Assembly: GCA_014695345.1 (NCBI GenBank)
Contig: JACJOC010000016.1
Coordinates: 1 to 64,000, forward strand
Length of the DNA stretch: 64,000 nucleotides
Source: Cyanobacteria bacterium FACHB-471
Lineage (GTDB): Bacteria; Cyanobacteriota; Cyanobacteriia; Elainellales; Elainellaceae
Direction: 5' to 3'
Below are positions 10,111 through 25,881 of this stretch, piece by piece; positions within the stretch are counted from its first letter, which is position 1; every line of letters starts with the position of its first letter. A program made the position numbers and the translations under genes. The notes under the pieces were generated by a model. The model made no database searches. It was given only the letters and a program-made list of their open reading frames with translations, and was not told where the DNA came from.

Positions 10111-10115
10111 TCACC

Positions 10116-10403
10116 CTACCTCTTCAAATGAGGAGCCACTTGATAAATTGTATTCAGCAATTCTGTAAAAGAGTTCCCTTCTTTTTGTTTCGCAAATTGG
10201 ATAACATCTTCTGCCTTCTGCACCTGCGCCGCATTTATAGGAATCTGAGATTCATCCACTTCATACAGAACAATCACTCCATCAAACTGAGCAGGCAAGA
10301 GAGACTTGAGTAAGTTAAATGCCAGAATATGGGGTGCAATCTCAGGAGTAAATTGTGCAGGGGTAGAGGTAAAAGTTGGGCTAGAAACCGGACTGGCGAT
10401 CAT
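10116..10403 (-). CDS. Small effector-associated domain (EAD) protein
   Basis: A 95-residue protein. The Pro/Ser/Thr-rich first 25 residues form a linker, and the rest (ILAFNLLKSLLPAQFD, LLNTIYQVAPHLKR) is nearly identical to the C-terminal domain of the TIR protein at 18326-19054. It is therefore an adaptor domain expected to bind its partner in the adjacent STAND NTPase. Its start lies inside the 3' end of the TIR-GUN4 gene (23-base overlap, different frame), with GGGAG just upstream. In the paralogous cassette this linker and domain are continuous with TIR, so the present split probably arose by an indel in the G-rich stretch around 10405-10425. It may be made by coupled re-initiation. Confidence 0.75.
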   Translation of the reverse strand: MIASPVSSPTFTSTPAQFTPEIAPHILAFNLLKSLLPAQFDGVIVLYEVDESQIPINAAQVQKAEDVIQFAKQKEGNSFTELLNTIYQVAPHLKR

Positions 10404-11361
10404 CCCTGCTCCCTAGCCCTGGATGTGAGAGAAGAGATAGCATGCCAACTACAACACCAGGTGGCAAGTGTCCCTTTGGGGCTGACATACTAAAAGTCGC
10501 ATCGTCATGGCTAATCCACTCGCCATTCACTTGCCAACCAATCTTGGACCCAAACTGGTTCCAAATGTTATCACCCGGATACTGGCCATCAAGTTTGGCA
10601 CCACACTCGACGTAGATTTGCTTTTGCACGCTAAACCCAAATTTACCCTTACTGTACTTCATCCATAGGCGATCAATGGTTTGTAGATCAGTATGGGGAA
10701 AGGTCAGTAGTTCTTCCGAGGTGAATCCATCCCCTAATTTCTTGCTAATCCCTTGAATCATCACTTTATAGGTTTCGTCATCCGCCGCTTTCCAGTTGCC
10801 TGCCTTCAATAGATCCCGCAGTTGAGTGTAATCTACGCCTTTCTCAGAATTTAGCTTGTCGTCTGCGTAGTCGGGAGTTACCTGTCCTGGTTGGACAATA
10901 TCTAAAGTGAGTAGTTGAACAGGAGCGTTTGATCGAGGTTTTCTTCCTGTAATGCCCCACTCCAGGAGATCGAATGTCTGCTCGTCCTCTATATCATTTC
11001 TAAAAACAACAGCCTGGTACTGTCTCAGGAAAAGTAAGTTCTCTGGAATTTCCCCTACCCCAGGCAACAGAACTGGAATCACTGGAATTTTCCGTTCCAC
11101 GCACTGGCTAATAAACACTTGCAATTCAAGAGTTTGCCATGGTCCCAGACCTGTTTGACCAATGCAAACGGCAGCAGTTTTAATCTGACCTATAGCCTGC
11201 TGAATTTGATCTTGAAAACTGGTACCTGGGGCAATCTCCTCTATATCCAACCAGGGCTTGAGCCCCCGATCCTTCAGCTTTCTATAGATTTGCTGAATCA
11301 GCGGTTTGTCTTTGCTACTATGAGCCAGAAATACATCAAATGGCCGTTCTGTTACTTTCAT
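10381..11361 (-). CDS. TIR-GUN4 protein (cassette A effector candidate)
   Basis: A 326-residue fusion. Residues 1-145 are a TIR domain (FDVFLAHSSKDKPLI, PWLDIEEIAPGTSF, and GPWQTLELQVF with the candidate catalytic Glu). Residues about 178-305 are a GUN4 domain: LRDLLKAGNWKAADDET, a TIDRLWMKYSKGKFGFSVQ helix-strand and the GWQVNGEW edge. GUN4 binds tetrapyrroles and stimulates Mg-chelatase in chlorophyll synthesis; in fusions it probably serves as a tetrapyrrole sensor or ligand-binding module. The last 15 or so residues are linker-like and out of frame with the EAD that the paralogous protein carries. It is first in a minus-strand unit with the EAD and STAND genes. NAD cleavage by this TIR is inferred. 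Confidence 0.85.
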   Translation of the reverse strand: MKVTERPFDVFLAHSSKDKPLIQQIYRKLKDRGLKPWLDIEEIAPGTSFQDQIQQAIGQIKTAAVCIGQTGLGPWQTLELQVFISQCVERKIPVIPVLLPGVGEIPENLLFLRQYQAVVFRNDIEDEQTFDLLEWGITGRKPRSNAPVQLLTLDIVQPGQVTPDYADDKLNSEKGVDYTQLRDLLKAGNWKAADDETYKVMIQGISKKLGDGFTSEELLTFPHTDLQTIDRLWMKYSKGKFGFSVQKQIYVECGAKLDGQYPGDNIWNQFGSKIGWQVNGEWISHDDATFSMSAPKGHLPPGVVVGMLSLLSHPGLGSRDDRQSGF

Positions 11362-11643
11362 CGATGCTTCGCTCCAGAAATCTCTATCAACGTCTAAGTA
11401 TAAACACTCGGTTCTTTTTTAGTTTTGCTACAGGTTTAAGTTTTCCACCTCTAGCTTATTATGAGCCATCGCACTGATCTCCTGCCTTTTTGTACCTCCT
11501 ATCTCTATAGAAGCAGAACTGATTTACGAAAGTATAGTTACAAATAACACTTGTTAAACAAAACCTAAATATCATTGCTTGTATAGACCGCAATATTTTT
11601 TGTGGTGAAAAACAGTCCCTTTTCTTCATGCGGAATGTTAAGG

Positions 11644-12675
11644 ATGGAAATGAATTCGCCTGAAACAAGTAACCCTTCTATGCCTCCCGGTCAATCTCAA
11701 CGCCCTTTTCGGATTCTAAGCCTTGAAGGGGGTGGCGTTATGGGAGCATTCTCTGCTTCTGTATTGGCAGCTCTTGAGCAAAGTACAGGCTGTCGTTGTG
11801 TTGACCATTTTGACTTGATAACAGGTACTTCTACTGGAGGGATTATTGCGATCGGCTTAGGATTAGGTCTATCTGCTGAAGAGATTCTTGAGTTTTACCG
11901 CAAGCAGGGACCCGTTATCTTCAATAATGCTGGGATTACTTATCGGCTTTTTCAGAAAATCCAGCACATTTTCCAACCTAAGCATTCTCATAACACCTTG
12001 CGGCAAGCACTAAAGGCAGCCTTTGGAGATCTTAAGTTTGGCGAGTCAAAATGTCGTCTCTTGATTCCCACCTATGATGCCATTGGGGGGCGTATCTTTC
12101 TGATGAAAACAGCTCATCATGAGAGATTTGAATATGACATTGATGCACTGGCTGTAGACGTTGCGTTAGCGACATCTGCTGCTCCTACTTACTTCTCTGC
12201 TGCGCCATTTCCGCTGCATGAGGGATCAAGCTATGTGGATGGTGGAGTGTGGGCCAATTGTCCGGCGTTGGCTGGGCTAGTGGAAGCAGTACATTTTCTC
12301 AATGTTCCTCCTGACCAGATTGATATCCTGAATATTGGGACCACTGGCTCTCCGTTTAGTGTGTCTCAAAATACCCAGGCAGGTCTTTTTGGTTGGGCTA
12401 AGAGTTTGATTAATTTGTTTATGAATTCTCAGGCCGAAGCTTCAAGAGCGACGAGTTATCTGCTCACCAAGGGGGGCTTTTTCAACATTAACTACGTAAC
12501 AACCCCAGGGAGATTCTCGCTGGATGATTCTAGTAAGGTGAGCGAACTCATCAATCTTGGGCGAGGCGAAGCAGTCAAGCGAGACAATCTGGAAACCGTG
12601 CAACGGCGCTTTCTAAATGGCAACAAGGTCAAGCCTTTTGTGCCATTACATCAGGTGAGACAGAAAACACAGTAG
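11644..12675 (+). CDS. Patatin-like phospholipase
   Basis: About 343 residues. The patatin fold is shown by the oxyanion motif EGGGVMGAF, the nucleophile elbow GTSTGG (Gly-x-Ser-x-Gly), and SAAPTYF plus DGGVWANCPA, which supplies the Asp of the Ser-Asp dyad. Patatins hydrolyse membrane phospholipids. In CBASS and related abortive-infection systems they are membrane-destroying effectors, but no cyclase gene is adjacent here. The gene lies on the opposite strand between two TIR/STAND cassettes, so a role as effector or independent defence gene is inferred from context only. An upstream in-frame GTG (11602) exists; ATG 11644 or 11650, just after AAGG, fits the family N-terminus better. Confidence 0.85.
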   Translation: MEMNSPETSNPSMPPGQSQRPFRILSLEGGGVMGAFSASVLAALEQSTGCRCVDHFDLITGTSTGGIIAIGLGLGLSAEEILEFYRKQGPVIFNNAGITYRLFQKIQHIFQPKHSHNTLRQALKAAFGDLKFGESKCRLLIPTYDAIGGRIFLMKTAHHERFEYDIDALAVDVALATSAAPTYFSAAPFPLHEGSSYVDGGVWANCPALAGLVEAVHFLNVPPDQIDILNIGTTGSPFSVSQNTQAGLFGWAKSLINLFMNSQAEASRATSYLLTKGGFFNINYVTTPGRFSLDDSSKVSELINLGRGEAVKRDNLETVQRRFLNGNKVKPFVPLHQVRQKTQ

Positions 12676-12721
12676 AGTGCACAGGGAGGATTGCGTTCAC
12701 TAGAGTAGCTTCTCATCAGGC

Positions 12722-15700
12722 TTAGCTAACGCTAAACTCACTCACCAATTTGGTAATGGGCATCACTTGGTCAGGGTATAGTTGCGCTAGATAGCCGCAC
12801 ATTTTGTAGGCTGCATCTAGGTACTCCGCGCAAGGAATCAGGAGTTGCTTGAAGCCTTCTCGATCGCCTGTTTCAACAAAGGCAGCAGCAATTTCAAGGA
12901 GGTGATGGTTGCGACCGCTTAGGATTTTTTCTGCGGTTGCCACAGCTTGCTCGCCAAGTTTTGCCTTTGCCTGAGCGATCGCGATCTCTTTTATTGTCCC
13001 TGCCCTGTCGTATGCATCTTCAATCTGCTGGGCAGTGGTAAGTGCAGCAGCCGCATCTCCAGCGTTCAATTGGGCAATCGCAATCTCTTTGAATGCTTCT
13101 AACTTTTCGTAGGCATTTTCAATTTGCTGGGCAGTGGTAGGTGCAGTGTTCAGGGTTGTTCGGGCAGCCGCCGCATCTCCAGCGTTCAATTGGGCAATCG
13201 CAATCTCTTTGAGTGCTTCTAACTTATGACGGGAATGCTCAATCTGCTGGGTGATGGTAAGTGCAGCAATCACATCTCCGGTGTTCAATTGGGCGATCGC
13301 AAGATCCTTCAGCGCTTCTGATTTTTCGTAGGCATTTTCAATCTGCTGGACAGTGGCAAGTGCAGTGTTCAAGGTTGCTTGGGCAGCCACCGCATCTCCA
13401 GCGTTCAATTGGGCAATCGCAATCCTCTTCATATAGTATGGATTGTTAATCTGCTGGGCAGCGGTAAGTGCAGCGTTCAGGGTTGCTTGGGCAGCAGCAT
13501 CTCCTACTTGAGCTTGGACAATAGCGATTTCCCTTAGTGCCTCTGCCGTGTCGGATGAATCTCCAATCTGTTGGACAATATCGAGTGCAGCAGCAGCATC
13601 TCCTGCTTGAGCTTGGACAATAGCGATTTCCCTTAGTACAGATGGCTTGCTGAGTAAACTTTCAATCTGCTGGGCAGTAGTGAGCGCAATGTTCAAGGTT
13701 ATTTGGGCAGCAGCATCTCCTGCTTTAAGTTGGGCGATCACAATCTCTTTCAGTGTCCTTGCCTTGTCAGATGAATCCTCAATCTGTTGGGCAGTGGTAA
13801 GTGCAGCAACAGCGTCTCCTGCTTGAGCTTGGGCAATTGCAATTTCCTCCAGTACAGATGACTTGTAAGATGAGTTCTCAATCAGCTGAGCAGTAGTGAT
13901 GGCAGCAGCAGCATCTCCTGCTTTGAGTTGGACAATCGCAATTTCCTTCAGTGGTTCTACCTTATGATGGGAATCCTCAATCTGCTGGACAGTGGTAAGT
14001 GCAGCAACAGCGTCTCCTGCTTGAGCTTGGGCAATTGCAATTTCCTCCAGTACAGATGATTTGTAAGATGAGTTCTCAATCAGCTGAGCAGTAGTGATGG
14101 CAGCAGCATCATCTCCTGCTTTGAGTTGGACAATCGCAATTTCCTTCAGTGGTTCTACCTTATGATGGGAATGCTCAATCTGTTGGACAGTGGCAAGTGC
14201 AGTGTTCAAGGTTGCTTGGGCAGCAGCATCATCTCCTGCTTTGAGTTGGGCGATCGCAATCTCCCTTAGTACAAATAACTTGTCGTGTGAATCTTCAATC
14301 TGTTGGGCAGTGATAAGTGCAGCATCATCTCCTGCTTTGAGTTGGGCGATCGCAATTTCCCTTAGTACAAATGACCTCCTAGATGAACCAAGCTGCTGGG
14401 TAGTAGTGAGTGCAGCATCAGCATCTCCGGTGTTCAATTGGGCGATCGCGATCTTCTGCAGTGCTTCTAACTTTTCGTATGAATCCTCCTCAATTTGCTG
14501 GGCAGCAGCGAGTGCAGTGCTCAAGGTTGTTTGGGCAGCCACAGCATCTCCCGCTTGAGCTTGGGCAATTGCAATTTCCCTTAGCACAGATGGCTTAAGT
14601 ACCAATGACTCTCTGGACAAATGCTCAATCTGCTGGGCAGTAGTGAGTGCAGTGTTCAAGGTTGTTTGGGCAGCCGCTGTATCTCCTGCTTGAGCTTGGG
14701 CAATCGCAATTTCCCTTAACACAGATGGCTGATCGTAGAAAATAATCTGCTTAGCATTGGTAAGTGCAGTGTTCAAGGTTATTTGGGCAGCAGCAGCATC
14801 TCCTGCTTGAGCTTGGGCGATCGCAATTTCCTTCAGTACTTCTATCTTGTTGTACTTTATGCCGTACGTTCCGTATGAATCTTCAATCTGCTGGGCAGTG
14901 GTAAGAGCAGTCGCTGCATCTCCTGCTTGAGCCTGGGCGATTGCAATTTCCTTAAGTGCTTCTAACTTGTCGGATGAATACTCAATCTGCTGGGCAGTGC
15001 TAAGAGCAGCATCATCATCTCCCGCTTGAAATTGGGCGATCGCAATCCCCTTGAGTGCTTCTGACTTATGGTATAAATTCTCAATCGGTTGGGCAATGGT
15101 GAGTGCAATGTTCAAGGTTGTTTGGGCAGCAGCGGCATCTCCCGCTTGAAATTGGGCAATTGCAATTTCCTTCAGTACTTCTAACTTGTTGGATGAATGC
15201 TCAATCTGCTGAGCAATGGTAAGAGCCGCCGCCGCGTCTCCCGCTTGAGCTTGGGTGACCGCAATCTCCTTCAATGCTTCTAACTTGTCGGATGAATTCT
15301 CCATCTGCTGGGTGGTGGTAAGTGCAGCAGTAGCATCTCCTGCTTGAGCTTGGGTGACCGCAATCTCTTTCAGTGCTTTTAACTTTTCGTATAAACCCTC
15401 CATCTGTTGGACAGTGGTGAGTGCAGCAGTAGCATCTCCGGCTTGAGCTTGGGCAATCGCAATTCCTTTGAGTGCTTCTGACTTATGGTATGAATTCTCT
15501 ATATGCTGGGTGGTGGTAAGTGCAGTGTTTAGGATTGTCTGAGCCGCCGCAGCATCTCCGGCTTTAAGTTGGACGATCGCAATCTCCTTGAGCGCTTCTG
15601 ACTCATAGTATGAATCTTCAATCTGCTGGGCAGTGGCAAGTGCAGCAGTATCTCCCGTTTGAGCTTGGGTGATTGCAATTTTCTTCAGTGCTTCTGACTT

Positions 15701-18325
15701 AAAGTATGAACCTTCAATTTGTTGGGCAATGGTAAGTGCAGTGTTCAAGGTTGTTTGGGCAGCGGCATCTCCCGCTTGAAATTGGGCAATTGCGATTTCT
15801 CTCAATACATATGCCTTAATTGATAGATCTTCGGTCTGTTGGGCAATGGTAAGTACAGTGTTCAAGGTTGTTTGGGCAGCCGCAGCATCTCCTGCTTTAA
15901 GTTGGGTGAGGGCAATTTCCCTCAATGCTTCTAACTTGTTGAATGAATCATCAATCTGTTGGACAGTGGTAAGTGCAGCAGCAGCATCTCCTGCTTTAAG
16001 TTGGGTAAGGGCAATCTCCTTGAGTGCAAATGATTGATAGTTTGAATCATCAATCTGTTGAACAGTGATGAGTGCAGCCGCAGCATCTCCTGCTTTAAGT
16101 TGGGTGAGGGCAATTTCCCTCAATGCTTCTAACTTGTTGGATGAATCATCAATCTGTTGGACAGTGGTAAGTGCAGCAGCAGTATCTCCTGCTTGAGCTT
16201 GGGTGATGGCAGTGGTAAGTACAACTGTATATCTTGCTTGAGCTTGAGCGATCGCAATCTCCTTCAGTACATCTGCCTTGTTGTAGTCGTATGAATATTC
16301 AACCTGCTGGGCAGTAGTAAGTGCAGTGTTCAGAGTCATTTGGGCAGCCGCCGCATTGCCAACGTTCATTTGAACAATTGCAATCTCTTTCAGTGCCTTG
16401 ATACACACTTTGTACAGATCCTGCCGTTCCTTATCCGCTAAAACTTGTTGGATGAATGATAGATCTAGCTCACCGTCTTGATCTTGTATAACCTCCGGAA
16501 CAACCAGGAATTGACTCAGCAAATAAACGGCATACCCAGCTTTCCAGTCTGATAAACGCGTTAACTGTACGGACTGCAGCCTCTTCAGCGTTTTCTTGGC
16601 AAGTTCTAATGAGTTTAATTCAGATTTGTTCCTGGTAACGAGTGACCATGCCAGCAGCAAAAGCCACAGAATACAATCTTCTCGACTAGATTGCTCTGCC
16701 AGCTTCCAGGCTCGTTCCAAACTTCCTGCTCGCAAGGCATCCAGAGGCGATTCTTGTGCCATCTCAATTTTGCGTCTGGCATGGAGCAACAAAAACTCTG
16801 CCATCCCCCCTGCTTCATCCGCTTCCGCTTTGCTCTGCAATGCCAGCTTGATAGTTTTCAAGGGCAGTTCTGGCGTGTCGGGAATGACTTGCCGTTGGGC
16901 ATTGGCAAAGGCTTCATTTCGGGCAAGGTCATAGAGCGGTTCTAACTGCTTTGCCTCCTGTAAGTGATCGGCATAATACCGCAAGGCATAGGGGCTTTCG
17001 TTCTCCTGCCAGCTAGCACAGTAATTGATTAGTTTATTTCTTGCTAAATCAGTTTCCTCTGTCCCTAAAACCTGTTGAAACTGAGCGGCTAATAGAGGAT
17101 GGGCAAAGCTATAGAAATCTGATCGGATACTAAACCAACGAGTGACTTGCCAGGGTAACCTTGGCCAATCAAATGCTCCTAATCCAGTTAATGCTTTAAT
17201 TTCGTTTTTTGATAATGCTCCCAACGCTACCGATAGTAAAACAAATAACGCTTGTACTTTTTCACTGTCTGCTGCTTCAGCCAATTGATCAAATTGCTGC
17301 TCCACATACTTTGTAAATCCTTTTGGACTATTGGTAAGGAGCATCTGAATATCTTTTCCCTGCTCGGCGGCTTGCTTCAAGTCATCCAGCAAGTAGCGCA
17401 AGTAAAGGGGAAAGCCGTCTGTTATGATGTCCAGCGCTTCAATAAAGTCAGGCTCCTCTGCATAAGCCGTTAAGCCATTAATTCTCCCAACCCAATCAGC
17501 AAGGGCTTCACGGGGCAATTGATTCAAAGGTAATTGACGGGTAGCTTTTTTTTTCCAATCTTCTAAGTATTTTGGCTCATCATCTGGTTCGGCGCGTGCC
17601 GATACAATGACATACACCCCCTCCGGCAACGAAGTAAAAAATGGTTCAAATGTCTTTTCGGCTTCATCTAAACCATCGAGAACAATAATTAGGGGACGGC
17701 AATTGTTCTGTTGTGGATCAGCAGTAATCATCTTGAAATTGAAAAGGGCGTCCCGCATCCCACTTTCATCAACCGGAAACTCTTTTTTGAGGGGTCTGTA
17801 ATAGAAATTAAGCTGCCGCAGTAGATGTCGATAGGCGTTGGGGACTGACTTCATGGCATCTGAACTGCTACGAAAGCAGTGAAAGACGACGAAATACTTC
17901 TCTTGTTGGGTCTCCTGCCAGTGACTTAATAAAGCCGATTTACCAAAACCAGCAGGAGCCGTAACCAAAAACACGCCGCTAGAGTTCTGCTCTATAAACT
18001 GATTAATTTGGTCTTGCTCCCTAGATCGCCCCGCAAAAGGTCTGCTGGTATACTCCTTAAGCACCTCCTTGACCTTAGCCTCAATTTCTAGCCCATAAGG
18101 CTGAATTTGCCTCAAAATCTCAGGGTCAGCTAGTATTTCATCTAGCCGATCGCTTTGCTGTTTTTGTTCAATTAACTTAAGGGCTGCTATAGCTCGTGAA
18201 GTCTGTGGCGCAAACGATCCTGGAAGATAGGACAACTCAATTCCAAGTTGACGAGATACGATTTCTTCAAATTCGTCGTATTCAAGGCTCTTCAGTTTGT
18301 CTAAACGCTTTGCAGGAGTATTCAT
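12722..18325 (-). CDS. Giant STAND NTPase with EAD-like N-terminus and repeat array (cassette B)
   Basis: A 1867-residue paralogue of the protein at 5824-10110. The order is the same: N-terminal adaptor domain (1-90), NTPase with Walker A APAGFGKS at 123-130 and the Walker B motif IIVLDGLDE, a helical linker (SPYALRYYADHLQ), about 32 repeats with consensus ALKEIAIAQAQAGDAAAA, and a terminal cap (FVETGDREGFKQLLIPCAEY). The ATG follows the TAA of the TIR-EAD gene with no spacing (TAAATG), so the two are coupled. The likely role is an infection-triggered oligomerising switch that brings the TIR partner together. Cassettes A and B have different repeat numbers and diverged repeats, suggesting different triggers. 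Confidence 0.85.
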   Translation of the reverse strand: MNTPAKRLDKLKSLEYDEFEEIVSRQLGIELSYLPGSFAPQTSRAIAALKLIEQKQQSDRLDEILADPEILRQIQPYGLEIEAKVKEVLKEYTSRPFAGRSREQDQINQFIEQNSSGVFLVTAPAGFGKSALLSHWQETQQEKYFVVFHCFRSSSDAMKSVPNAYRHLLRQLNFYYRPLKKEFPVDESGMRDALFNFKMITADPQQNNCRPLIIVLDGLDEAEKTFEPFFTSLPEGVYVIVSARAEPDDEPKYLEDWKKKATRQLPLNQLPREALADWVGRINGLTAYAEEPDFIEALDIITDGFPLYLRYLLDDLKQAAEQGKDIQMLLTNSPKGFTKYVEQQFDQLAEAADSEKVQALFVLLSVALGALSKNEIKALTGLGAFDWPRLPWQVTRWFSIRSDFYSFAHPLLAAQFQQVLGTEETDLARNKLINYCASWQENESPYALRYYADHLQEAKQLEPLYDLARNEAFANAQRQVIPDTPELPLKTIKLALQSKAEADEAGGMAEFLLLHARRKIEMAQESPLDALRAGSLERAWKLAEQSSREDCILWLLLLAWSLVTRNKSELNSLELAKKTLKRLQSVQLTRLSDWKAGYAVYLLSQFLVVPEVIQDQDGELDLSFIQQVLADKERQDLYKVCIKALKEIAIVQMNVGNAAAAQMTLNTALTTAQQVEYSYDYNKADVLKEIAIAQAQARYTVVLTTAITQAQAGDTAAALTTVQQIDDSSNKLEALREIALTQLKAGDAAAALITVQQIDDSNYQSFALKEIALTQLKAGDAAAALTTVQQIDDSFNKLEALREIALTQLKAGDAAAAQTTLNTVLTIAQQTEDLSIKAYVLREIAIAQFQAGDAAAQTTLNTALTIAQQIEGSYFKSEALKKIAITQAQTGDTAALATAQQIEDSYYESEALKEIAIVQLKAGDAAAAQTILNTALTTTQHIENSYHKSEALKGIAIAQAQAGDATAALTTVQQMEGLYEKLKALKEIAVTQAQAGDATAALTTTQQMENSSDKLEALKEIAVTQAQAGDAAAALTIAQQIEHSSNKLEVLKEIAIAQFQAGDAAAAQTTLNIALTIAQPIENLYHKSEALKGIAIAQFQAGDDDAALSTAQQIEYSSDKLEALKEIAIAQAQAGDAATALTTAQQIEDSYGTYGIKYNKIEVLKEIAIAQAQAGDAAAAQITLNTALTNAKQIIFYDQPSVLREIAIAQAQAGDTAAAQTTLNTALTTAQQIEHLSRESLVLKPSVLREIAIAQAQAGDAVAAQTTLSTALAAAQQIEEDSYEKLEALQKIAIAQLNTGDADAALTTTQQLGSSRRSFVLREIAIAQLKAGDDAALITAQQIEDSHDKLFVLREIAIAQLKAGDDAAAQATLNTALATVQQIEHSHHKVEPLKEIAIVQLKAGDDAAAITTAQLIENSSYKSSVLEEIAIAQAQAGDAVAALTTVQQIEDSHHKVEPLKEIAIVQLKAGDAAAAITTAQLIENSSYKSSVLEEIAIAQAQAGDAVAALTTAQQIEDSSDKARTLKEIVIAQLKAGDAAAQITLNIALTTAQQIESLLSKPSVLREIAIVQAQAGDAAAALDIVQQIGDSSDTAEALREIAIVQAQVGDAAAQATLNAALTAAQQINNPYYMKRIAIAQLNAGDAVAAQATLNTALATVQQIENAYEKSEALKDLAIAQLNTGDVIAALTITQQIEHSRHKLEALKEIAIAQLNAGDAAAARTTLNTAPTTAQQIENAYEKLEAFKEIAIAQLNAGDAAAALTTAQQIEDAYDRAGTIKEIAIAQAKAKLGEQAVATAEKILSGRNHHLLEIAAAFVETGDREGFKQLLIPCAEYLDAAYKMCGYLAQLYPDQVMPITKLVSEFSVS
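12921..16402 (-). repeat. In-gene tandem repeat array of STAND protein B
   Basis: About 32 coding units, mostly 93-120 bp, again mixing a short type and a long type with an extra xxTLNTAL helix turn. A 198-bp block (two 33-residue units) at 13797-13994 is followed by a near-identical copy at 13995-14192 with only a few base changes. That is a recent duplication and shows that the array is still changing length. Confidence 0.9.
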
Positions 18326-19054
18326 TTACCTTTTCAAATGAGGAGCTACACCATAAATCGTGTTAAGCAGATCTGCAAAGGAATCTCCCTCTTTTTGAGA
18401 TGCAAGTTTCATCACATCTTTAGCAATCTGTACCTGTGCTACATTCCTGGGCAGTTGAGATTCATCAATCTCATACAGAAAAATCACTTCATCAAACTGA
18501 GCAGGCAAAAGAGACTTTAGTAGGTTAAACGCCAGAATGCGGGGCGCGACTCCAGATGCAAATCCAGGAGTTGGGCTATAAACTGGACTAGAACTCGCCC
18601 CTGCTCCTCCCAATGGTGGCTTACCCGTTTCTCCTCGAATGCCACGCACTAACGTCTGAAATCCCTCTTCATAGTTCTGGTCATTGATACTTACGTATAA
18701 CATTGCTCCAATAAAGGGAGGGATCTTACAGCCTTGATAGAGCACCGGAATTAGGCGACGACTGGGCGGACGCGATTCCAGCTTTGCTTGCTTCTCCTCC
18801 TCTATTTGTGCCGTTAACCAGGCATCCCTCTCCCAATTGACCCACTGTGCATCAACACTTTGAGGTGAAAGCACAAAGAGGAAAACACTTGCACCGTCCA
18901 ATCCCTCTTCAATCTTTCTAGCGATGCTGTCCCCAGGTTGAATCTCCCACTTATCTAGCCAAGCATCAATACTCTCACGAGTTCGTAGGTCCGTTGCTAA
19001 CCGCTCAACAAAGGGCTTATCGACACTACTGTGGCTCACAAAGACTTTGGTCAT
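18326..19054 (-). CDS. TIR-EAD fusion protein (cassette B effector candidate)
   Basis: A 242-residue protein. Residues 1-150 are a TIR domain (VFVSHSSVDKPFVERLA, a DAWLDKWEIQPGDS loop, WVNWERDAW with the candidate catalytic Glu). A Gly/Ser/Pro linker leads to a C-terminal EAD at about 172-242 (LAFNLLKSLLPAQFDEV, LLNTIYGVAPHLKR) matching the free-standing domain at 10116-10403. The start has a strong ribosome site (AAGGAG). The stop abuts the STAND NTPase start, so effector and switch are co-translated. The EAD probably docks on the N-terminal domain of that NTPase. NAD depletion as the output is inferred from the TIR family. Confidence 0.85.
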   Translation of the reverse strand: MTKVFVSHSSVDKPFVERLATDLRTRESIDAWLDKWEIQPGDSIARKIEEGLDGASVFLFVLSPQSVDAQWVNWERDAWLTAQIEEEKQAKLESRPPSRRLIPVLYQGCKIPPFIGAMLYVSINDQNYEEGFQTLVRGIRGETGKPPLGGAGASSSPVYSPTPGFASGVAPRILAFNLLKSLLPAQFDEVIFLYEIDESQLPRNVAQVQIAKDVMKLASQKEGDSFADLLNTIYGVAPHLKR

Positions 19055-19125
19055 AGAACTCCTTCATTCCCCTCTTAGATCTAAACAATTGAAACACCTT
19101 TTTTTAAGGAGTGGCTTTAGAAGAA

Positions 19126-20082
19126 TTAACGTTCCCCTGTAATGCCCCAAATTAGCTGTTTCATTGGATCAGGTTCTAATTGACGAAAATCAACCCACAT
19201 CATGCCTTCTAAAAAGACTGGTAATCCCGGTGTCTCTTCACAATCTGGAAGAATCACAGGGATAACTGGGCACTTGCGTCTATGAAACTCTCTCAGAAAA
19301 GCATCTAATTCTGGTTCTTGCCAGGGGCCAGTATTGTTCCTACCGATAAAGACAGCCGCTGCCTTAATATTTCTAATTTGCTCCTCCAAAGCTCTTTGCC
19401 AAGGGAGACCTGGACGCAAATCCCATTCATCTAACCACGGCAAAATTCCTAATTCTTTGAGATGCTCTCCAATGCGTTTGATGGCAGGCTTATCGTCACT
19501 GTTGTGGCAAAGAAAAACGTCAAAGTCTTGGGTTGCGATTTTGCCTTGGAGCAAAGAAGTAGCAGTATCTCGATCGCGTTGCAGATCGGCAGACTTATCT
19601 ATTTCTATAAGAATAGCTGCTTCAGCTTCTGTAACTTGTTCCGTTCGTCCCTGGTCTATCAAGGAAATTCGAGTGTCACAAACACCACAAGTGATCCAAT
19701 CCAAACCGCGTTCTCGTCGCATCTGGACGTGTTGTTCAGGAATTGTGGCACCACAACCGTGACAAGCTAAAATCCGTCGGCATTGAATACTCTCCGATAA
19801 TGCTCGACGATTTAGATGAATGAAAATATAGTCTTCGAATTGCGAGCGGGTTTGTTCATTTGCTGCTTTGCCAAAAAAGAGTGTTAATTCCCCCTTACCT
19901 TCTTGAACTTCGCGTAGGAACATACCGCATAGTCCACCTGCTTTTGCTTTGTAAGTTGCAGCATTCTTCCATAAGTCTTGTTTGATAAAGAGTCCACTTC
20001 TTGTAAGCCTCACGGCTAAAGTTGCGTAAATATTGAGAACTGCACCTTCAAATTCAAAGATTACGGTAAGCAAACTCAGCAC
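19126..20082 (-). pseudogene. 5'-truncated TIR protein gene fused to the cas10d 3' end
   Basis: An open frame of 318 residues whose first codon is a GTG inside the cas10d stop region (29-base overlap, different frame). The N-terminal part (EGAVLNIYATLAVRL, CGMFLREVQEGKGELTLFF) and the zinc-ribbon-like part (ILACHGCGATIP, WITCGVCDTRISL) look like the middle and end of longer cyanobacterial TIR proteins. These normally begin with an ATPase- or ROC-type region, which is missing here. The C-terminal TIR domain is intact (FDVFLCHNSDDKPA, LPWLDEWDLRPG, GPWQEPELDAF). I read it as a gene truncated by the event that brought cas10d next to it. A functional short product made by coupling to cas10d cannot be excluded. 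Confidence 0.6.
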
Positions 20083-22906
20083 CAGACTTAACTCGATGGC
20101 GGTGTTCTTGCAAAAGGGCGCGATCGCCTTTGTACTGCCCCAGAAACAGATCCTTGATACAGGTAGTTACGAACTGATGGACTGCCTGCATCTCGTTTTT
20201 GACGCGAATTTCAATTGACAGAGACTTATCCATGATTAAAGGACGCTTGTAAGGTTCTTGGCGCTTTAGGGCATCATGCAGCCGTCCTGCTGTCTGTAAT
20301 ATGAGGGTCTCGATGGGTAAATCATTGGAGGTTGAAAGAATATCTTCCAAAACCTTTGATAGAGGGAGAACAATAGCGTGAGATGACTTCGCTACATGGA
20401 CTCGATAGAACGTGCGGTATTCCTGAACCAGCCGTTGAGTCAGTTCAAGTTGCTGTTCCATATCCAGATCTCCTGTTGCCCAAATCTGAGCAAACTCCCA
20501 ATACTGTTGAACTCTGTCATCCGAGAGACTTTGAAAACGCGAGCGGGCAAGGCTAAAAATAGCTGAGACATCCGTTACGATTGCCTGTACTGTACCTGGA
20601 AATGCTTGCCATTGAGGGTCAGGGCGTTTTGCCCGACAATCAAGATGAATAGTGTAGGCAATTAGTAAGCGATCGAGCCAATCACTCAGATGTTTGGTCT
20701 GCCCCTGCGAATGCTCCTCCAGATGAAGGGTAGTTGGCAAACTCAAAAGACTCCAGAAACTTGCAGTTTCATCTACCTGCACTGTTGCCTGAAATTCACT
20801 GCCCCTGTTATAGAACGGTACGGAGCTAGCGGTAGCAACCACTTTAACACCCAGTAGAAGTGGGAGCGCGATCGCTAGAAACGCAGGTTTAATCCAAGCA
20901 TCAGTCGTAGTTTTACCTTTTGTAGTGGTGTAAATGACTGCCAGGAAAGGGAGATCACGTTTGTCTTCCGCGTTTGGGTCGAGATCAGTTCTAAGCCAGG
21001 GGTAGAAGCGCAAAGCATTGGCATCCATCCCGTGTTCCTGCCAGAATCGGCAAATCTCCCACAAGTTGACCTGCTTGAGTTGCTTAACCAAAAGTCGAAT
21101 GGCTTTTGTGATCTGGGGAGCGTGGACAAAGGCAGGAAAAAGATACAGGAAAATAGGCTGTTGATCTTCCAGTTTGCCTGCGGGAACAGACCAGAATGCC
21201 TGCCGCAGGAGCATCTCCAATGACCAGATTTTGGAAATTCCTCGCTTAAGCTGTCGCCCTCCCAGCTGATTTTTGTTGCTGTATTGCTGCGGTTTGAACA
21301 GAACTACCGAGTCCATCTGATCCTCTGAGAGAAATTCCCCAGAACTTAAAGAGCAAATGGGCTGCTTGGCAAGCTTGGTCTTAGCATTAACATAGCCTGC
21401 CAATTCCCGTTGAAACGAGGTTGGTTGTACATCCCAGCCTTGGATTTCAAGGTATTGTGTCACATAGTCATAAAAAATTTCGCGAGTCAGATTAGGGTGA
21501 GTGGGCAACAGATGATTTTGCTCAGCCCAAGTTGCTAACTGTTCCGCTAAATCTTGAAGCTCTACCAAGAAGTAATTTGGAATTGAGTTCCTTGAGTTTG
21601 GAGTGGAATGCTTAGTAACGTAATGAGCGGCTGCATAATACCAACCTAAGTTCACTCCTCCCGCATTCCGCTGAGTCTGTTCAGGAGTGATGTCAGATTG
21701 AATCTCTAGTTTTTCAAGAATCCAGGCAATGAATTCGGGACGATTCCTAAAAAATTCTCGTTGGACCAGGATAAGAAACTCGGCTAGGCGATCGCTTCTT
21801 AAACCGGCACCCCGCGCTAAAAACTCCCGCTCGGTTGGGTCAAGACTGAGCCTTGCCAGTCGTTTTGGTGTTGCTGGTTCCTTTTCATTTCTGACGTAGG
21901 CTTTCATGATACTGGGTAGATTCCGAATCAATCGGGCAGGTGAGAATAGCTCCAGCGTTTGAGGTGCAGCTTTTAGCCCTTTACCATCTCGTTTGAAGCC
22001 AGCTTCTCCTCGAGAAATACTGTCTATTAATTGATCTCTGACCTGCTCCCATACAAACTTCTGAAATTCTATGTGAGCTGGTATCCTGCTATCTGATGGT
22101 GCAAGGTAAATAATGCCATCTGGGAAAAATAAAATTGGTTGCCAGTCCAGCTTCTCAGTAAATTGCAGTACTGCGTTGTGAATGCTATTCGTGAGTAGTC
22201 CAGTGCAGTTACGGAGGCGATGATAGATCAGAGTACGAGCAATCCCCAACTCATTCATCAACTCTTGCAGGCAATTGCCCTCTGGTGTGACAACAATATC
22301 AGCAGGACCGGAGAGTTGAGCGGCGATCGTTCCAAATAAGAGTAATTGATGTAGGGGCTGTTTCAGGCGACATTCAGAGATTTTGTAGGTATTTCTCTTG
22401 ACTGAAGAGGTATTCTTTCTTGCAATCTTAGGAGTAATTTGAGCGAGATAATTAATTTCTGACAAGTACTCACGCCACTCCATCCAAAATGCATCGAGAT
22501 TCAGTGTTTCTCCTAAAGTAATATCTGATGTAGGCAGTAAGGCTGTCGCTTTACTCAGGCAACCGTTGTTGTAGCCCTGGAAGGTAAACCCTAAGCAAAG
22601 CAACCGTTTCTCATTATCGGACAGCATAAGTTTGGCACGTAAGAACGAGAGCAGATTCCAAACAATCAGCAAGCTATTCAGAATACAAATCAACAAGCTT
22701 TGTCCAAGGTTGTTACTGCTTTGGGTTGCCTGCTGCATCCTATCCAATTCCTCGGGTTGGACGAACCAACCATTCCACGCTTTATCAAAGGCGGAAAGCA
22801 TTCCAAACTCCTGTTCCAGAGCAGGTAGTACTGTCTCTATATAAGCAAGTAACACCGGATCGAGATCGAGCGTTTGCAGGAGAAGGGTTTGGAGAAGGGT
22901 TGCCAT
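20054..22906 (-). CDS. cas10d: Cas10d/Csc3-like protein, type I-D CRISPR, HD motif lost
   Basis: A 950-residue protein matching Csc3/Cas10d, the large subunit of type I-D Cascade. Recognisable family segments are LLQTLLLQTLDLDP, VLPALEQEFGM, LSDNEKRLLCLGFT, ALIYHRLRNCTGLLTNSIHN-like text at about 230-250, a DWQPILFFPDGIIYLAP-like stretch, and GVNLGWYYAAAHY. Family members carry an N-terminal HD nuclease site (LHDYxK after CLGFT). Here those residues are FQGYNN, so His-Asp become Gln110-Gly111, and the upstream histidine position reads LLICILN. The nuclease is therefore probably dead, as in type I-D CRISPR-associated transposons. No csc1, csc2, cas6, cas3 or CRISPR array is visible nearby. It is divergent from tniQ, with 425 bp between them. 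Confidence 0.8.
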   Translation of the reverse strand: MATLLQTLLLQTLDLDPVLLAYIETVLPALEQEFGMLSAFDKAWNGWFVQPEELDRMQQATQSSNNLGQSLLICILNSLLIVWNLLSFLRAKLMLSDNEKRLLCLGFTFQGYNNGCLSKATALLPTSDITLGETLNLDAFWMEWREYLSEINYLAQITPKIARKNTSSVKRNTYKISECRLKQPLHQLLLFGTIAAQLSGPADIVVTPEGNCLQELMNELGIARTLIYHRLRNCTGLLTNSIHNAVLQFTEKLDWQPILFFPDGIIYLAPSDSRIPAHIEFQKFVWEQVRDQLIDSISRGEAGFKRDGKGLKAAPQTLELFSPARLIRNLPSIMKAYVRNEKEPATPKRLARLSLDPTEREFLARGAGLRSDRLAEFLILVQREFFRNRPEFIAWILEKLEIQSDITPEQTQRNAGGVNLGWYYAAAHYVTKHSTPNSRNSIPNYFLVELQDLAEQLATWAEQNHLLPTHPNLTREIFYDYVTQYLEIQGWDVQPTSFQRELAGYVNAKTKLAKQPICSLSSGEFLSEDQMDSVVLFKPQQYSNKNQLGGRQLKRGISKIWSLEMLLRQAFWSVPAGKLEDQQPIFLYLFPAFVHAPQITKAIRLLVKQLKQVNLWEICRFWQEHGMDANALRFYPWLRTDLDPNAEDKRDLPFLAVIYTTTKGKTTTDAWIKPAFLAIALPLLLGVKVVATASSVPFYNRGSEFQATVQVDETASFWSLLSLPTTLHLEEHSQGQTKHLSDWLDRLLIAYTIHLDCRAKRPDPQWQAFPGTVQAIVTDVSAIFSLARSRFQSLSDDRVQQYWEFAQIWATGDLDMEQQLELTQRLVQEYRTFYRVHVAKSSHAIVLPLSKVLEDILSTSNDLPIETLILQTAGRLHDALKRQEPYKRPLIMDKSLSIEIRVKNEMQAVHQFVTTCIKDLFLGQYKGDRALLQEHRHRVKSGAEFAYRNL

Positions 22907-23331
22907 AACAAATCCTATTTGGATTTGAAGTGTGAATAATTCTCAAAATGCTATTAGCAAATTCTGGAAGATCTTGGAAAAGTAATATTTCCTTTCAATT
23001 GAGAGTAAAGCTGTTTTCCATACTCATGATTCATCCGAAAAATGAGACGGAGACAATCGTTCACCGTTCAATTAACCTTTTAAGATTTTTTTGTTTCTTT
23101 CAGAAGAAAAATTTGCTAGTATTTCTTCAATGATATATTTATACTTCTGGAAGTTGTTAGGGTAAAGTTCACAGTAGTCTGACGACGAAAACTTCGATAA
23201 CTGGTGTCAGTCTCTTCCTTTAAACTAACTTTACCTGTAAAACAGTTTAGAAAACCAGTCTCTACAAAATTTCTTGCTCGGCAGAAAATTGAGTAGTAAC
23301 GGACAGCATATCAGCGATAAACCAGAAACTA
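22907..23331. other. Divergent intergenic region between cas10d and tniQ
   Basis: 425 bp, AT-rich, no credible ORF and no HIP1 site. An inverted repeat GGTAAAGTT / AACTTTACC lies near 23160-23170 and 23225-23235. I see no direct repeats of CRISPR type and no stretch matching the tRNA-Ala gene that could be a delocalised guide. It presumably holds the two divergent promoters. Confidence 0.4.
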
Positions 23332-24075
23332 ATGATTTTTGAAGAGTTAAACCCTCTAGACATTGCCAAAAGGAGCAGACTCTATCATTTACCGCCGATC
23401 GCGAACGGTACTTCATGTGCCGAAGGTTTAATCAGCTACATTTGTCGTCTTTCCGAAGCACACTGCGTTTCTCCAGGAATCCTACTTAAGAAAGAAATCC
23501 TACCTGTTTTCAGGAAAAACTACTCCATTAGCTTTGGAGGAGCTTATGCCATACAAGTGGATGGACATGGCGTTTCAGTATCTTCTGTGGCTAAGCCTAT
23601 CTACCGAAAAAATCCTAACGAATATGGATTACTGGCTTGGCAATACCTTGAAGGACTTAAGCTTTTGACATTGAGAGCAGATTTGCAAGAACTGATTATC
23701 CCCATCAATTTAAGTCTAATTTTGGAGGGTGTAGCAGAGCAAGAGCTAGGACGAGATTTGCGAGCTTGGTGCCCCGAGTGTTTTCAAGCTTGGCGAACTG
23801 TTGGACATCCCCTTTATGAGCCTCTTCTCTGGTCAATTGCTGCCATTACTGTATGTCCTTATCATTACAAGCCCTTACAGTTACGCTGTCCACACTGTCG
23901 GAAGTCACAACGCCCTCTCACGTCTAGAACACGAATCGCTCGATGTTCTCAGTGCTTTGAATGGTTGGATGTTCGTGCAGCGCCAGCATCAGAGACGGAA
24001 ATTCTAATTGCAATGCAGTTAGAACAACATCTTGAGATTGCAGAACGGGTGATGAGATTTATGAATCTGGGTTAG
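23332..24075 (+). CDS. tniQ: TniQ family transposon targeting protein
   Basis: A 247-residue protein of the TniQ/TnsD family. The N-terminal TniQ helix has SRLYHLPPIANGTSCAEGL and ISYICRLSEAHCVSPG. The C-terminal half holds the zinc-finger pattern: AWCPEC, VCPYHYKPLQLRCPHC and IARCSQCFEW. TniQ links a target-recognition complex (Cascade, Cas12k or its own DNA-binding domain) to the TnsC AAA+ regulator in Tn7-like elements. The short length and the missing large C-terminal DNA-binding domain are typical of TniQ in CRISPR-associated transposons rather than TnsD. It sits between a nuclease-dead cas10d and a broken tnsA. No tnsC is present. The frame is intact. Confidence 0.85.
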   Translation: MIFEELNPLDIAKRSRLYHLPPIANGTSCAEGLISYICRLSEAHCVSPGILLKKEILPVFRKNYSISFGGAYAIQVDGHGVSVSSVAKPIYRKNPNEYGLLAWQYLEGLKLLTLRADLQELIIPINLSLILEGVAEQELGRDLRAWCPECFQAWRTVGHPLYEPLLWSIAAITVCPYHYKPLQLRCPHCRKSQRPLTSRTRIARCSQCFEWLDVRAAPASETEILIAMQLEQHLEIAERVMRFMNLG

Positions 24076-24108
24076 CTCGTTTAGCCAACAACTAACAGAG
24101 GAAAATCA

Positions 24109-24632
24109 ATGCTGTCAGGGGAAGAATTAAAAAAGCGAATTAACTATTTGAACCTACCAGAGGCAGGTCGTGGACTTTTAGGAAAAAATACTTTCCTCTA
24201 GCCAGTACGACAGGAGGTAGAGACAATAACGCCTTTGGCTTCTACTCCAGCACAAAAATGGGTAAAACTATCGCATTTGAATGGAGCAATGTCGAACAAC
24301 CGGGTTTAGAACGATTTTACGAATATGACAATGAAGTCTTGGGATATCTCGAGCAACCATATCAATTTACACTTAAATATCTGTCAAAAGATGGCAGGGT
24401 TATGACCACAGGGTACATATCAGATTACTGCGTCTTCTATTAGAGACTTTGTTGCGACCAACAAATGGAAACTACAGAAAAAGTTAGTAGAACTGGCGGA
24501 GCAGCAACCCAATCGTTATTACCAAAATGAGAATGGACAGTAGCGGAGTCTAACTACTGAAGAAAATATACGATAATACGGCTTCCATTTCTGTATTCGC
24601 ACAGATACTGAGCTCGACGTTGAAGGAGACTA
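24109..24632 (+). pseudogene. tnsA-like (TnsA-TnsB N-terminal) transposase fragment, frameshifted
   Basis: Three frames must be joined to follow the homology. Frame one from ATG 24109 reads MLSGEELKKRINYL and GRGLLGKN and stops at about 24200. The next frame reads GGRDNNAFGFYSSTKMGKTI, then YEYDNEVLGYLEQP and a degraded HTPDF-like YISDY. A third frame has LVELAEQQPNRYYQNENG and, after an in-frame stop, SLTTEENIR and FHFCIRTD. This is the order of the N-terminal endonuclease region of cyanobacterial Tn7-like TnsA or TnsA-TnsB fusions. Everything after it (TnsB, TnsC) is gone, and the fragment runs straight into the transposon-end sequence. It is therefore a dead remnant, consistent with an internal deletion. 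Confidence 0.6.
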
Positions 24633-24665
24633 ATAAGATAAGCTTATAGTACAGCCCAAATGGTC

Positions 24666-24790
24666 GGTTAGTACAGAATTAACTGCAACAATCAATATGT
24701 GTTCATAGGGTAATACAAGCATTAAGTGGCAGTTACGGACAATTAATGCTTGTTGTCCCAAAATCGCGACATTTAATGTGCGAATGTACA
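24666..24790. mobile_element. Probable right end of a Tn7-like/CAST element
   Basis: The last six bases are TGTACA, the terminal sequence of many cyanobacterial CAST ends. Going inward there are four related AT-rich motifs around TTAA: 24671-24686, 24715-24730, 24737-24753 and 24766-24781 (for example CGACATTTAATGTGCG). They resemble TnsB binding sites. Two form an inverted repeat, ACAAGCATTAA / TTAATGCTTGT. The end abuts the tRNA-Ala gene, so a 5-base target duplication would begin AATGG. No matching left end was found in the window. Motif assignment is by eye. Confidence 0.5.
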
Positions 24791-24792
24791 AA

Positions 24793-24865
24793 TGGAGCTA
24801 AGGGAACTCGAATCCCTGACCCCTGCAATGCCATTGCAGTGCTCTACCAGCTGAGCTATAGCCCC
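24793..24865 (-). tRNA. tRNA-Ala (GGC)
   Basis: The minus strand folds as a complete tRNA. The acceptor stem pairs GGGGCTA with TAGCTCC, the D arm is GCTC..GAGC, the anticodon stem CTGCA/TGCAG encloses ATGGCAT (anticodon GGC), and the T arm is GGGATTCGAGTTCCC-like. The discriminator is A and CCA is not encoded. It is the boundary between the accessory island and core genes, and its 3' end lies two bases from the putative transposon end. Confidence 0.95.
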
Positions 24866-24990
24866 ATACTGCGCTTTTTGCACAGGCTTTTGATTATACT
24901 ACCTGAGTTTGCACTTTGCCAAGAAGATGCAGCTAGTTTTATGGTTGAGCAAATAGCGCCAAGTTGACAAGCATTTTTACTCACAACAGC

Positions 24991-25881
24991 TTAAGCAAGT
25001 TTTGTATTCTCTCGCCACACTTCCTTCAGCACGTCGAGAAACGCAAATACTGTGCGGGGTAGCAGGATGTCGGATGAGATAATCACGCCAATTGTGCGTT
25101 TTAATGGGGCGGGCAGGCTTTTGATTTGTACACCTTCGGGAATTGGCTCTGCTACCAGTCGAGCCATGACTGTTGCGCCTAATCCCTGTTGCACCATGCC
25201 AAGAATGGTTGAATCTTCTCTCACTTCGTAGTCAATCTTGAGCGTTTGACCAAACTGTGAGAAGTGGTCATGCACAGACTGATTATGTCGAGGGCTACGC
25301 AGGTTGAGAATCATTGGATAGCTGGCTAACTGTTCCCAGGTGAGGGTTGTTTCGGGTTGGATTGTTCCGGGTGGTAGCAAGGCTACAAATTCATCCTGAA
25401 ACAATTCCCAAACTTCAAAGCCAGGCGTGACAGGTAGAGACGTGAAGCCTACGTCCACTTGCCCTTCGCGAACTGCCTGCTCCACTTCAATGTAAATGTC
25501 GAATTCGGAGATGACTACGTTGATGGTCGGAAATTTGTTGCGAAACTGACGAATAATTTTGGGCAAAACATGAGTTGTGATGCTGCGGACTGAGGCAACT
25601 CGCACTTGTCCAGACTGTAATCCTCTAGCCGAACTTGCTTTTTTGTGAATTGACTCAATCAACTGGAGGATGTGACGCGCTTCCTGGATCATTTGCTCAC
25701 CTTCAGGAGTCAGGGTTGCGCCGTGCCGTCCTCTCAGGAACAAGATGATGCCTAAGTCGGTTTCCAGGGTGGCGATCGCATGGCTCACAGTAGACTGCGA
25801 CAGATTCAACTCCAAGGCAGCCGAGCTAAAGTTTCCTTGGTCGGCAACTGCAACAAAAGCCTGTAGCTGAGAAATTTTCAA
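24991..25881 (-). CDS. LysR-family transcriptional regulator
   Basis: A 296-residue protein. The N-terminal winged helix-turn-helix is classic LysR (MKISQLQAFVAVADQGNFS, LNLSQSTVSHAIATLE, GATLTPEGE). The rest is the periplasmic-binding-like inducer domain. It is divergent from the antiporter/urease genes, with a perfect 9-bp inverted repeat between them, so it probably controls that operon and its own expression. The inducer is unknown. LysR proteins of this subgroup in cyanobacteria often respond to ion or nitrogen status, but that is inference. Confidence 0.9.
   Translation of the reverse strand: MKISQLQAFVAVADQGNFSSAALELNLSQSTVSHAIATLETDLGIILFLRGRHGATLTPEGEQMIQEARHILQLIESIHKKASSARGLQSGQVRVASVRSITTHVLPKIIRQFRNKFPTINVVISEFDIYIEVEQAVREGQVDVGFTSLPVTPGFEVWELFQDEFVALLPPGTIQPETTLTWEQLASYPMILNLRSPRHNQSVHDHFSQFGQTLKIDYEVREDSTILGMVQQGLGATVMARLVAEPIPEGVQIKSLPAPLKRTIGVIISSDILLPRTVFAFLDVLKEVWRENTKLA

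What the first reader, a model, noticed from the sequence alone, without database searches (positions are those of the whole stretch)
20054..24790. Decayed type I-D CRISPR-associated transposon
Seen: cas10d/csc3 with the HD motif changed to QG, tniQ of the short CAST type, a frameshifted tnsA-like fragment and a TGTACA end. Known: cyanobacterial type I-D CASTs use a naturally nuclease-inactive Cas10d and fused TnsA-TnsB. Inference: this is an internal-deletion remnant lacking tnsB, tnsC, csc1, csc2, cas6 and the array.
Basis: partly seen in the sequence, partly recalled or inferred. Interest (0 to 1): 0.87.

Follow-up and report, generated by a model that had tools for sequence, protein, structure and literature searches.

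The report
Broken remnant of CRISPR-guided jumping gene
Beside a tRNA-alanine gene this cyanobacterium carries the remains of a CRISPR-guided transposon whose transposase is ruined while two of its target-finding genes are still readable, and which probably landed inside the tip of a second CRISPR transposon that used the same spot.

Summary
20054-22906(-) is Cas10d/Csc3 with HD changed to QG, 23332-24075(+) a full-length short TniQ, and 24109-24618(+) the first ~171 codons of a fused TnsAB with 3 stops and 2 frameshifts. Two same-family genomes carry type I-D CASTs with the same layout: cas6-csc1-csc2-cas10d facing tniQ-tnsAB-tnsC-tnsD, then tRNA-Ala(GGC). In the window the rest of tnsAB, tnsC and tnsD (~5 kb) is gone on one side; on the other, cas10d runs into a TIR gene and csc2-csc1-cas6 are gone. 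Genome-wide searches found no csc2, no second TnsAB, no cas1.

Corrections: right-end homology stops at 24760 (TGGGACA), 32 bp from the tRNA, the homing distance published for CyCAST. The outer TGTACA block (24761-24790) matches type V-K CAST ends, so the I-D element most likely landed inside a V-K end. No left end was found, so "internal deletion" is not strictly shown.

Added: Cas10d and TniQ of I-D CASTs are single clades, while their TnsAB and TnsC are not (AU p 8e-6, 3e-51): the targeting module changed transposase cores. Cas10d and tniQ carry no stops although tnsA is badly decayed, so the transposase probably died first.

The parts
20054..22906 (-). cas10d (csc3), 950 codons, open; about 20 residues shorter at the C-terminus than the G185 protein
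   Evidence: TIGR03174 E 3.1e-164; PADLOC 1231.6 bits; clade with three I-D CAST Cas10d, 100/98; 67.5% identical to G185 over 920 columns
22574..22579 (-). codons 110-111, Gln-Gly in place of the His-Asp of the HD nuclease motif
   Evidence: alignment; the other three CAST proteins read QN, NP and HL there
22907..23331 (.). intergenic stretch between divergent cas10d and tniQ, as in G396 and G388
   Evidence: gene order; a 55-bp piece 76% identical to G396, E 0.022 only
23332..24075 (+). tniQ, 247 codons, open, the length of the G396 and G388 TniQ
   Evidence: Pfam TniQ E 2.8e-12; 67.5% to G388, 58.9% to G396, 57.3% to G185; clade 100/100
24109..24618 (+). remnant of tnsAB: the first ~171 codons (TnsA part), 3 stops and 2 frameshifts
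   Evidence: 58.4% to G396 over 166 columns
24631..24760 (-). right end of the I-D CAST, terminus TGGGACA at 24760, with TTAATGCTTG-type repeats
   Evidence: aligns with the G388 right end from its first base, score 81, best of 1000 shuffles 28; repeat cluster only here in the window; no similarity above shuffles to the G396, G185 or G368 ends
24761..24790 (-). tip of a type V-K CAST end (TGTACATTCGCACATTAAATGTCG plus 6 bp), 2 bp from the tRNA
   Evidence: 24-mer in 22 of 386 genomes at up to 3 mismatches; same block bounds a Cas12k element in G019; 29 bp identical to an end at G185:C23
24792..24866 (-). tRNA-Ala (GGC), attachment site
   Evidence: ARAGORN, Rfam RF00005
19126..20053 (-). TIR gene, probably cut at its 5' end where cas10d is joined to it
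   Evidence: Pfam TIR_2 E 4.8e-24; the one relative covering its N-terminal part is a 1149-aa protein matched from about codon 834 on

Best explanation
A dead remnant of a type I-D CRISPR-associated Tn7-like transposon. Inferred history: (1) a V-K CAST inserted 2 bp past tRNA-Ala(GGC); (2) an I-D CAST with the order cas6-csc1-csc2-cas10d facing tniQ-tnsAB-tnsC-tnsD homed through TnsD to the same tRNA and inserted 32 bp past it, inside the V-K end; (3) about 5 kb was lost between codon ~171 of tnsAB and ~130 bp inside the right end, and the tnsA stump decayed; (4) a second loss joined the 3' end of cas10d to the middle of a TIR gene and took csc2, csc1, cas6, any array and the left end. In the ancestor a crRNA-guided Cascade with nuclease-dead Cas10d would mark a target and TniQ would bring TnsC and TnsAB there; now this locus can complete neither Cascade nor transposition. 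Shown: gene identities, missing genes, order, site, right end, junction sequences. Inferred: the nesting, the order of events, the ancestral activity.
For: Family and clade of Cas10d and TniQ; same gene order and same tRNA-Ala(GGC) in G396 and G388; tnsAB stump with stops and frameshifts; right end homologous to G388 up to its terminus; 32 bp from the tRNA against 30-33 nt for CyCAST homing (PMC10293859 section 9); V-K end block at the same 2-bp spacing at two other tRNA-Ala, G185:C23 and G233; own genome without csc2, second TnsAB or cas1; same-genus genomes match only from 24792 rightward.
Against: No left end and no target duplication found, so the left extent is unknown. No V-K gene was identified in the window. 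cas10d and tniQ are open although the tnsA stump is badly decayed, which one episode of neutral decay does not explain. The right end does not resemble that of G396, although the tnsAB stump does, so the ancestor was a mosaic or the sampling is thin.
Confidence: 0.88

Rival explanations
1. Retained pair: after the transposase died, cas10d and tniQ were kept by selection, as a target-binding pair without transposition or as parts lent to another element.
For: Five disabling changes in ~510 bp of tnsA, none in ~3.6 kb of cas10d plus tniQ: predictive probability about 1e-5 at one shared rate, 0.005 counting frameshifts alone. Cas10d end branch 0.29 against 0.31 for its sister; 38 of 254 invariant columns changed against 40, 42 and 41 in the three other CASTs.
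Against: csc2 is gone from the genome and the locus lacks csc1 and cas6. The contrast is explained equally well if tnsAB died first and Cascade was cut recently. Second-position counts hint at relaxation in one of three settings (p 0.049; others 0.42 and 0.21). No close strain was available.
Confidence: 0.1
2. The TGTACA block is the I-D element's own terminus, and the element ends 2 bp from the tRNA with no V-K element involved.
For: The block is directly joined to the right end and close to the tRNA; in G042 a TnsAB element is flanked on both sides by such blocks, so they might travel together.
Against: The homology with G388 stops exactly at TGGGACA; the block bounds a Cas12k element in G019; in G340 and G157 the bases between tRNA-Val and the TGTGA-type end are unrelated to it (by eye).
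Confidence: 0.12
3. A remnant of an ordinary defensive type I-D CRISPR-Cas system that happens to lie near a Tn7-like remnant.
For: Cas10d is the large subunit of both; csc2, csc1 and cas6 are missing, so the context is poor.
Against: HD motif lost; clade with CAST Cas10d; divergent tniQ-tnsAB directly beside it, as in G396 and G388; no cas3, cas1, cas2 or cas4 in the window, no cas1 in the genome.
Confidence: 0.02

Closest known systems
Type I-D CAST with inactive Cas10d (McCAST, Tn7575; and CyCAST, Tn7745)
   Same: Cas10d of an HD-dead clade, short TniQ, fused TnsAB (stump), tRNA attachment site; the right end lies 32 bp past the tRNA, against 30-33 nt for CyCAST.
   Different: Only cas10d and tniQ are open; no TnsC, TnsD, Csc2, Csc1 or Cas6 here; no left end. 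McCAST and CyCAST sequences themselves were not compared.
   Same: G396 and G388: same gene order and same tRNA-Ala(GGC). Nearest relatives: Cas10d to G185, TniQ and right end to G388, TnsA stump to G396.
   Different: They keep all eight genes sought (tnsAB, tnsC, tniQ, tnsD, cas10d, csc2, csc1, cas6); in G388 cas10d is split over two contigs. G185 has tniQ between tnsC and tnsD and lies at tRNA-Leu.
Type V-K CAST
   Same: The 30-bp block beside the tRNA matches V-K ends, with the same 2-bp spacing as at other tRNA-Ala genes.
   Different: One end block only; no Cas12k or V-K TnsB, TnsC or TniQ was identified in the window. V-K genes lie on other contigs of this genome.
[quoted passage not shown]
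   Same: Cas10d family.
   Different: No HD, cas3, csc2, csc1, cas6 or adaptation genes.

Membership tests
Type I-D CAST | Cas10d (Csc3) that groups with CAST Cas10d | tested here: met
   TIGR03174; clade of 4 CAST rows among 20, 100/98
Type I-D CAST | Inactivated HD nuclease of Cas10d (reported for McCAST, not for CyCAST) | tested here: met
   QG in place of HD; 17 of 17 non-CAST rows keep HDY[ND]K
Type I-D CAST | Short TniQ of the RNA-guided pathway | tested here: met
   247 aa; clade with three I-D CAST TniQ, 100/100
Type I-D CAST | Fused TnsAB transposase, intact | tested here: not met
   only ~171 codons with 3 stops and 2 frameshifts; no second TnsAB in the genome
Type I-D CAST | TnsC and TnsD | tested here: not met
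   no match in the window; the one TnsD hit in the window is TniQ itself. TnsC not sought genome-wide; three TniQ-family genes in the genome, the other two V-K type
Type I-D CAST | Csc2, Csc1, Cas6 and a CRISPR array | tested here: not met
   none in the window; no direct repeats of 24 bp or more at 18000-25000; csc2 absent from the genome; csc1 and cas6 not sought genome-wide
Type I-D CAST | tRNA attachment site with the right end about 30-33 bp past it | tested here: met
   tRNA-Ala at 24792-24866; right-end homology stops at 24760
Type I-D CAST | Two transposon ends and a target duplication | tested here: inconclusive
   right end only; no left end found in the window
Type I-D CAST | RNA-guided transposition | not testable with these tools
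   needs an experiment
Type V-K CAST (for 24761-24790) | TGTACA-type terminal sequence beside a tRNA | tested here: met
Type V-K CAST (for 24761-24790) | Cas12k and V-K TnsB, TnsC and TniQ between two such ends | tested here: not met
   one end block at up to 3 mismatches in the window; no such gene identified there, though V-K proteins were not searched against the window as a set; they exist on C11 and C63
[quoted passage not shown]
   none in the window, HD lost, no cas1 in the genome

The most novel reading that the evidence does not exclude
Cas10d and TniQ outlived their transposase and remain under selection as a stand-alone pair without Csc2, Csc1 or Cas6, with a role other than transposition, for instance occupying or guarding the tRNA site that I-D and V-K CASTs share.
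Probability: 0.1. Interest if true: 0.8.

Novelty: new member of a known kind. Interest (0 to 1): 0.5.

Why it matters
Type I-D CASTs are described as very few (PMC11406308 section 30). This locus and the three relatives found with it show how such an element dies; that TniQ plus the nuclease-dead I-D Cascade is one lineage carried by at least three transposase lineages; and that I-D and V-K CASTs probably stack at one tRNA gene with different spacing. If cas10d and tniQ prove to be under selection without transposase or the rest of Cascade, that would be a new fate for CAST parts.

Tried and rejected
Rejected: TGTACA as the I-D element's own end (homology with G388 stops at 24760, and the outer block matches V-K ends); a single internal deletion (there are two losses with different junctions).

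Led nowhere: the resident left flank. The two same-genus genomes share with window 400-20053 only seven pieces of 0.18-0.26 kb at 68-72%, and beside their tRNA-Ala lies what looks by eye like a tyrosine-recombinase element (no profile run). A left end was sought by motifs and repeat clusters. The one genome-contig scan gave two canonical I-D systems. The plasmid collection gave no Cas10d or TniQ hit of 60% or more. Polarised codon counts on relaxed selection were mixed. That the TIR gene is cut at its 5' end rests on one homolog covering its N-terminal part; the family hits match mostly the TIR domain.

Rows dropped or weak: of the 61 of 386 genomes with a Cas10d match, the tree uses those of about 46% identity or more; G172 (cut at a contig end) and G406 (cut) were left out. 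For 8 of the 17 non-CAST rows (G155, G255, G245, G149, G340, G127, G066, G298) the neighbouring genes were not examined; the other 9 have cas3 beside cas10d. TniQ loci that were fragments, had stops or were weak (G103, G022, G308, G278, G385), and G167:C5, twin of the G167:C7 copy used, were left out. The TnsAB and TnsC trees use 13 rows. One identity (Cas10d against G396, 25 columns) came from a wrong frame and was discarded; searches use the right one. Two rows blank (G155, G245) were remade.
Full report
What is there. The 950-residue product of 20054-22906(-) is Cas10d/Csc3 (TIGR03174 E 3.1e-164; PADLOC Cas10_Id 1231.6 bits). Its HD motif reads QG at residues 110-111. In the alignment 17 of 17 I-D proteins outside CASTs read HDY[ND]K (15, 2), while the three other CAST proteins read QN, NP and HL: the change differs in each of the four. 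23332-24075(+) is TniQ, as long as the short TniQ of G396 and G388. 24109-24618(+) is the first ~171 codons of a fused TnsAB, with three stops and two frameshifts. tRNA-Ala(GGC) lies at 24792-24866(-).

Relatives. Searches of 386 cyanobacterial genomes and of 36 genomes of the same order, all of the same family, led to three I-D CASTs with all eight genes sought. G185 has tRNA-Leu, tnsD, tniQ, tnsC, tnsAB, a cargo region, then cas10d-csc2-csc1-cas6. G396 and G388 have cas6-csc1-csc2-cas10d facing tniQ-tnsAB-tnsC-tnsD, then tRNA-Ala(GGC); in G388 cas10d is split over the ends of two contigs, and joining them is my inference. The ends and arrays of these elements were not fully mapped. The window has the G396/G388 order and site. 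By the coordinates, about 4.8 kb (G396) or 5.1 kb (G388) is missing between codon ~171 of tnsAB and the right end.

Right end. Window 24631-24760 aligns with the G388 right end from its first base, TGGGACA (score 81; best of 1000 shuffles 28). It shows nothing above shuffles with the G396, G185 and G368 ends. It stops 32 bp from the tRNA. CyCAST homing inserts 30-33 nt past its tRNA (PMC10293859, section 9 read), and McCAST-type elements have non-TGT ends (PMC11406308, passage read).

The outer block. The next 30 bp, 24761-24790, are something else. The 24-mer TGTACATTCGCACATTAAATGTCG occurs at up to 3 mismatches in 22 of 386 genomes, the own one included; I count nine inverted pairs 0.6-34 kb apart in eight genomes. 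The backward control pattern gave one hit, in the own genome. In G019 such a pair, next to a tRNA-Thr, bounds TnsB, TnsC, TniQ and a 632-aa Cas12k; in G091 it bounds TnsB, TnsC and TniQ (Cas12k not looked for). In the other regions fetched no V-K gene was seen (several are short). The first 29 bp of the window block are identical to an end at G185:C23 that sits 2 bp past the 3' half of a tRNA-Ala, and in G233 an exact 24-mer sits 2 bp past a tRNA-Ala(CGC): the spacing seen here. I read the block as the tip of a V-K CAST into which the I-D element homed. In G042 a TnsAB element at tRNA-Val also lies just inside a pair of V-K-like ends, with no V-K gene found on its left side, so the stacking is not unique to this window. 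Not excluded: that such tips travel with the inner element.

Left side. The cas10d frame ends about 20 residues earlier than in G185 and overlaps a TIR gene. The one relative covering that gene's N-terminal part, on a Calothrix plasmid, is a 1149-aa protein matched from about codon 834 on. csc2, csc1 and cas6 are absent from the window, and no left end was found. The 20 kb to the left hold TIR, SLOG, patatin and NPHP3/TPR genes of which the two same-genus genomes share only short pieces. Their contigs at this site match the window only from 24792 rightward.

Rest of the genome (7.15 Mb in 118 contigs). No csc2 (the control rings in 1 of 14 genomes), no second TnsAB, no cas1 (the control rings in 9 of 14). 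Of three TniQ-family genes the other two are V-K type: one beside TnsB and a TnsC-like gene at the end of contig C11, one beside a Cas12k frame that covers only positions 1-263 of 623 on C63. No complete I-D element able to act in trans was found; csc1, cas6 and tnsC were not sought genome-wide.

Module exchange. Cas10d of the four I-D CASTs is one clade among 20 rows (100/98), and their TniQ one clade among 23 (100/100). TnsAB of G185, G396 and G388 is not a clade among 13 cores (AU p 8.3e-6), nor is TnsC (AU p 3e-51, with G388 on a long branch). The window's TnsA stump groups with G396 (100/100), its TniQ is nearest to G388 (67.5%; fork 89/58), its right end matches G388, and its Cas10d groups with G185 (100/100). 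TnsD of G396 and G388 falls with that of G368 (92/90, not starred), and all three lie at tRNA-Ala(GGC). So TniQ plus Cascade behaves as an exchangeable targeting module. The review seen here already speaks of promiscuous exchange of TniQ partners in this branch (section 30). The primary I-D report (Hsieh and Peters) is not held, so I cannot say whether it shows this.

Order of decay. The tnsA stump has five disabling changes in ~510 bp; cas10d and tniQ have none in ~3.6 kb. At one shared rate the predictive probability of none is about 1e-5, or 0.005 counting frameshifts alone (a simple gamma-Poisson estimate that pools stops and frameshifts). Cas10d has no longer end branch than its sister (0.29 against 0.31) and departs at 38 of 254 otherwise invariant columns, against 40, 42 and 41 in the other CASTs. 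Against this, one of three second-position tests hints at relaxation (p 0.049; others 0.42 and 0.21). Amino-acid change in the stump exceeds that in Cas10d clearly in one of three settings only (p 0.011; others 0.061 and 0.107). The simplest reading is that the transposase died first and Cascade was cut later; selection on the remaining pair is possible but unproven.

Literature. Searches of the held library for I-D CAST, TniQ and Cas10d (8 papers), for CAST remnants in cyanobacteria with TniQ (1 paper) and for nested V-K insertions at tRNA genes (none) listed no title on this kind of locus. Of PMC10293859 and PMC11406308 I saw passages and one section each; of all others only listings. Whether G185 or another relative is McCAST itself was not tested.

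Verdict. A genuine remnant of a type I-D CAST, a new member of a known kind, most likely nested in a V-K end. As a dead element it is ordinary; the stacked homing, the module exchange and the survival of cas10d and tniQ make it worth a specialist's look.

Noticed in passing
window 481-19054: A run of conflict-type genes: Nuc_deoxyri_tr2, TIR with SLOG (LD_cluster2), ThsB-like TIR, TIR-GUN4, patatin and two large NPHP3/TPR proteins; nearly absent from the two same-genus genomes.
   Followed up: partly
own genome contigs C11:1-3529 and C63:~279400-281000 (L044, L006): Type V-K CAST parts: TnsB, a TnsC-like gene and TniQ on C11; TniQ and a Cas12k frame that stops after 263 of 623 model positions on C63.
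   Followed up: partly
own genome C14:~13443-13802 and 14477-14500 (L164): A TnsD C-terminal fragment (37.5% to residues 334-451 of the G185 TnsD) with a V-K-like end block about 0.7 kb away.
   Followed up: no
G385:C1:~4306135-4312918 (L139): A type I-D operon beside a WYL gene, with cas10d, csc2, csc1 and cas6 broken into several frames.
   Followed up: no
L091 and L161 (G042:C1:2272385-2297610): A TnsAB-type element at tRNA-Val whose two ends both lie just inside an inverted pair of V-K-like end blocks.
   Followed up: partly
L120 and L121 (G406:C319, G407:C374): At the same tRNA-Ala site the two same-genus genomes carry what looks by eye like a tyrosine-recombinase element instead.
   Followed up: partly
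L077 and L036 (G185:C116, cargo of the I-D CAST): Between tnsAB and cas10d lie a Cas1, a Cas2, an array of about 42 repeats and genes that look by eye like type III CRISPR genes.
   Followed up: no
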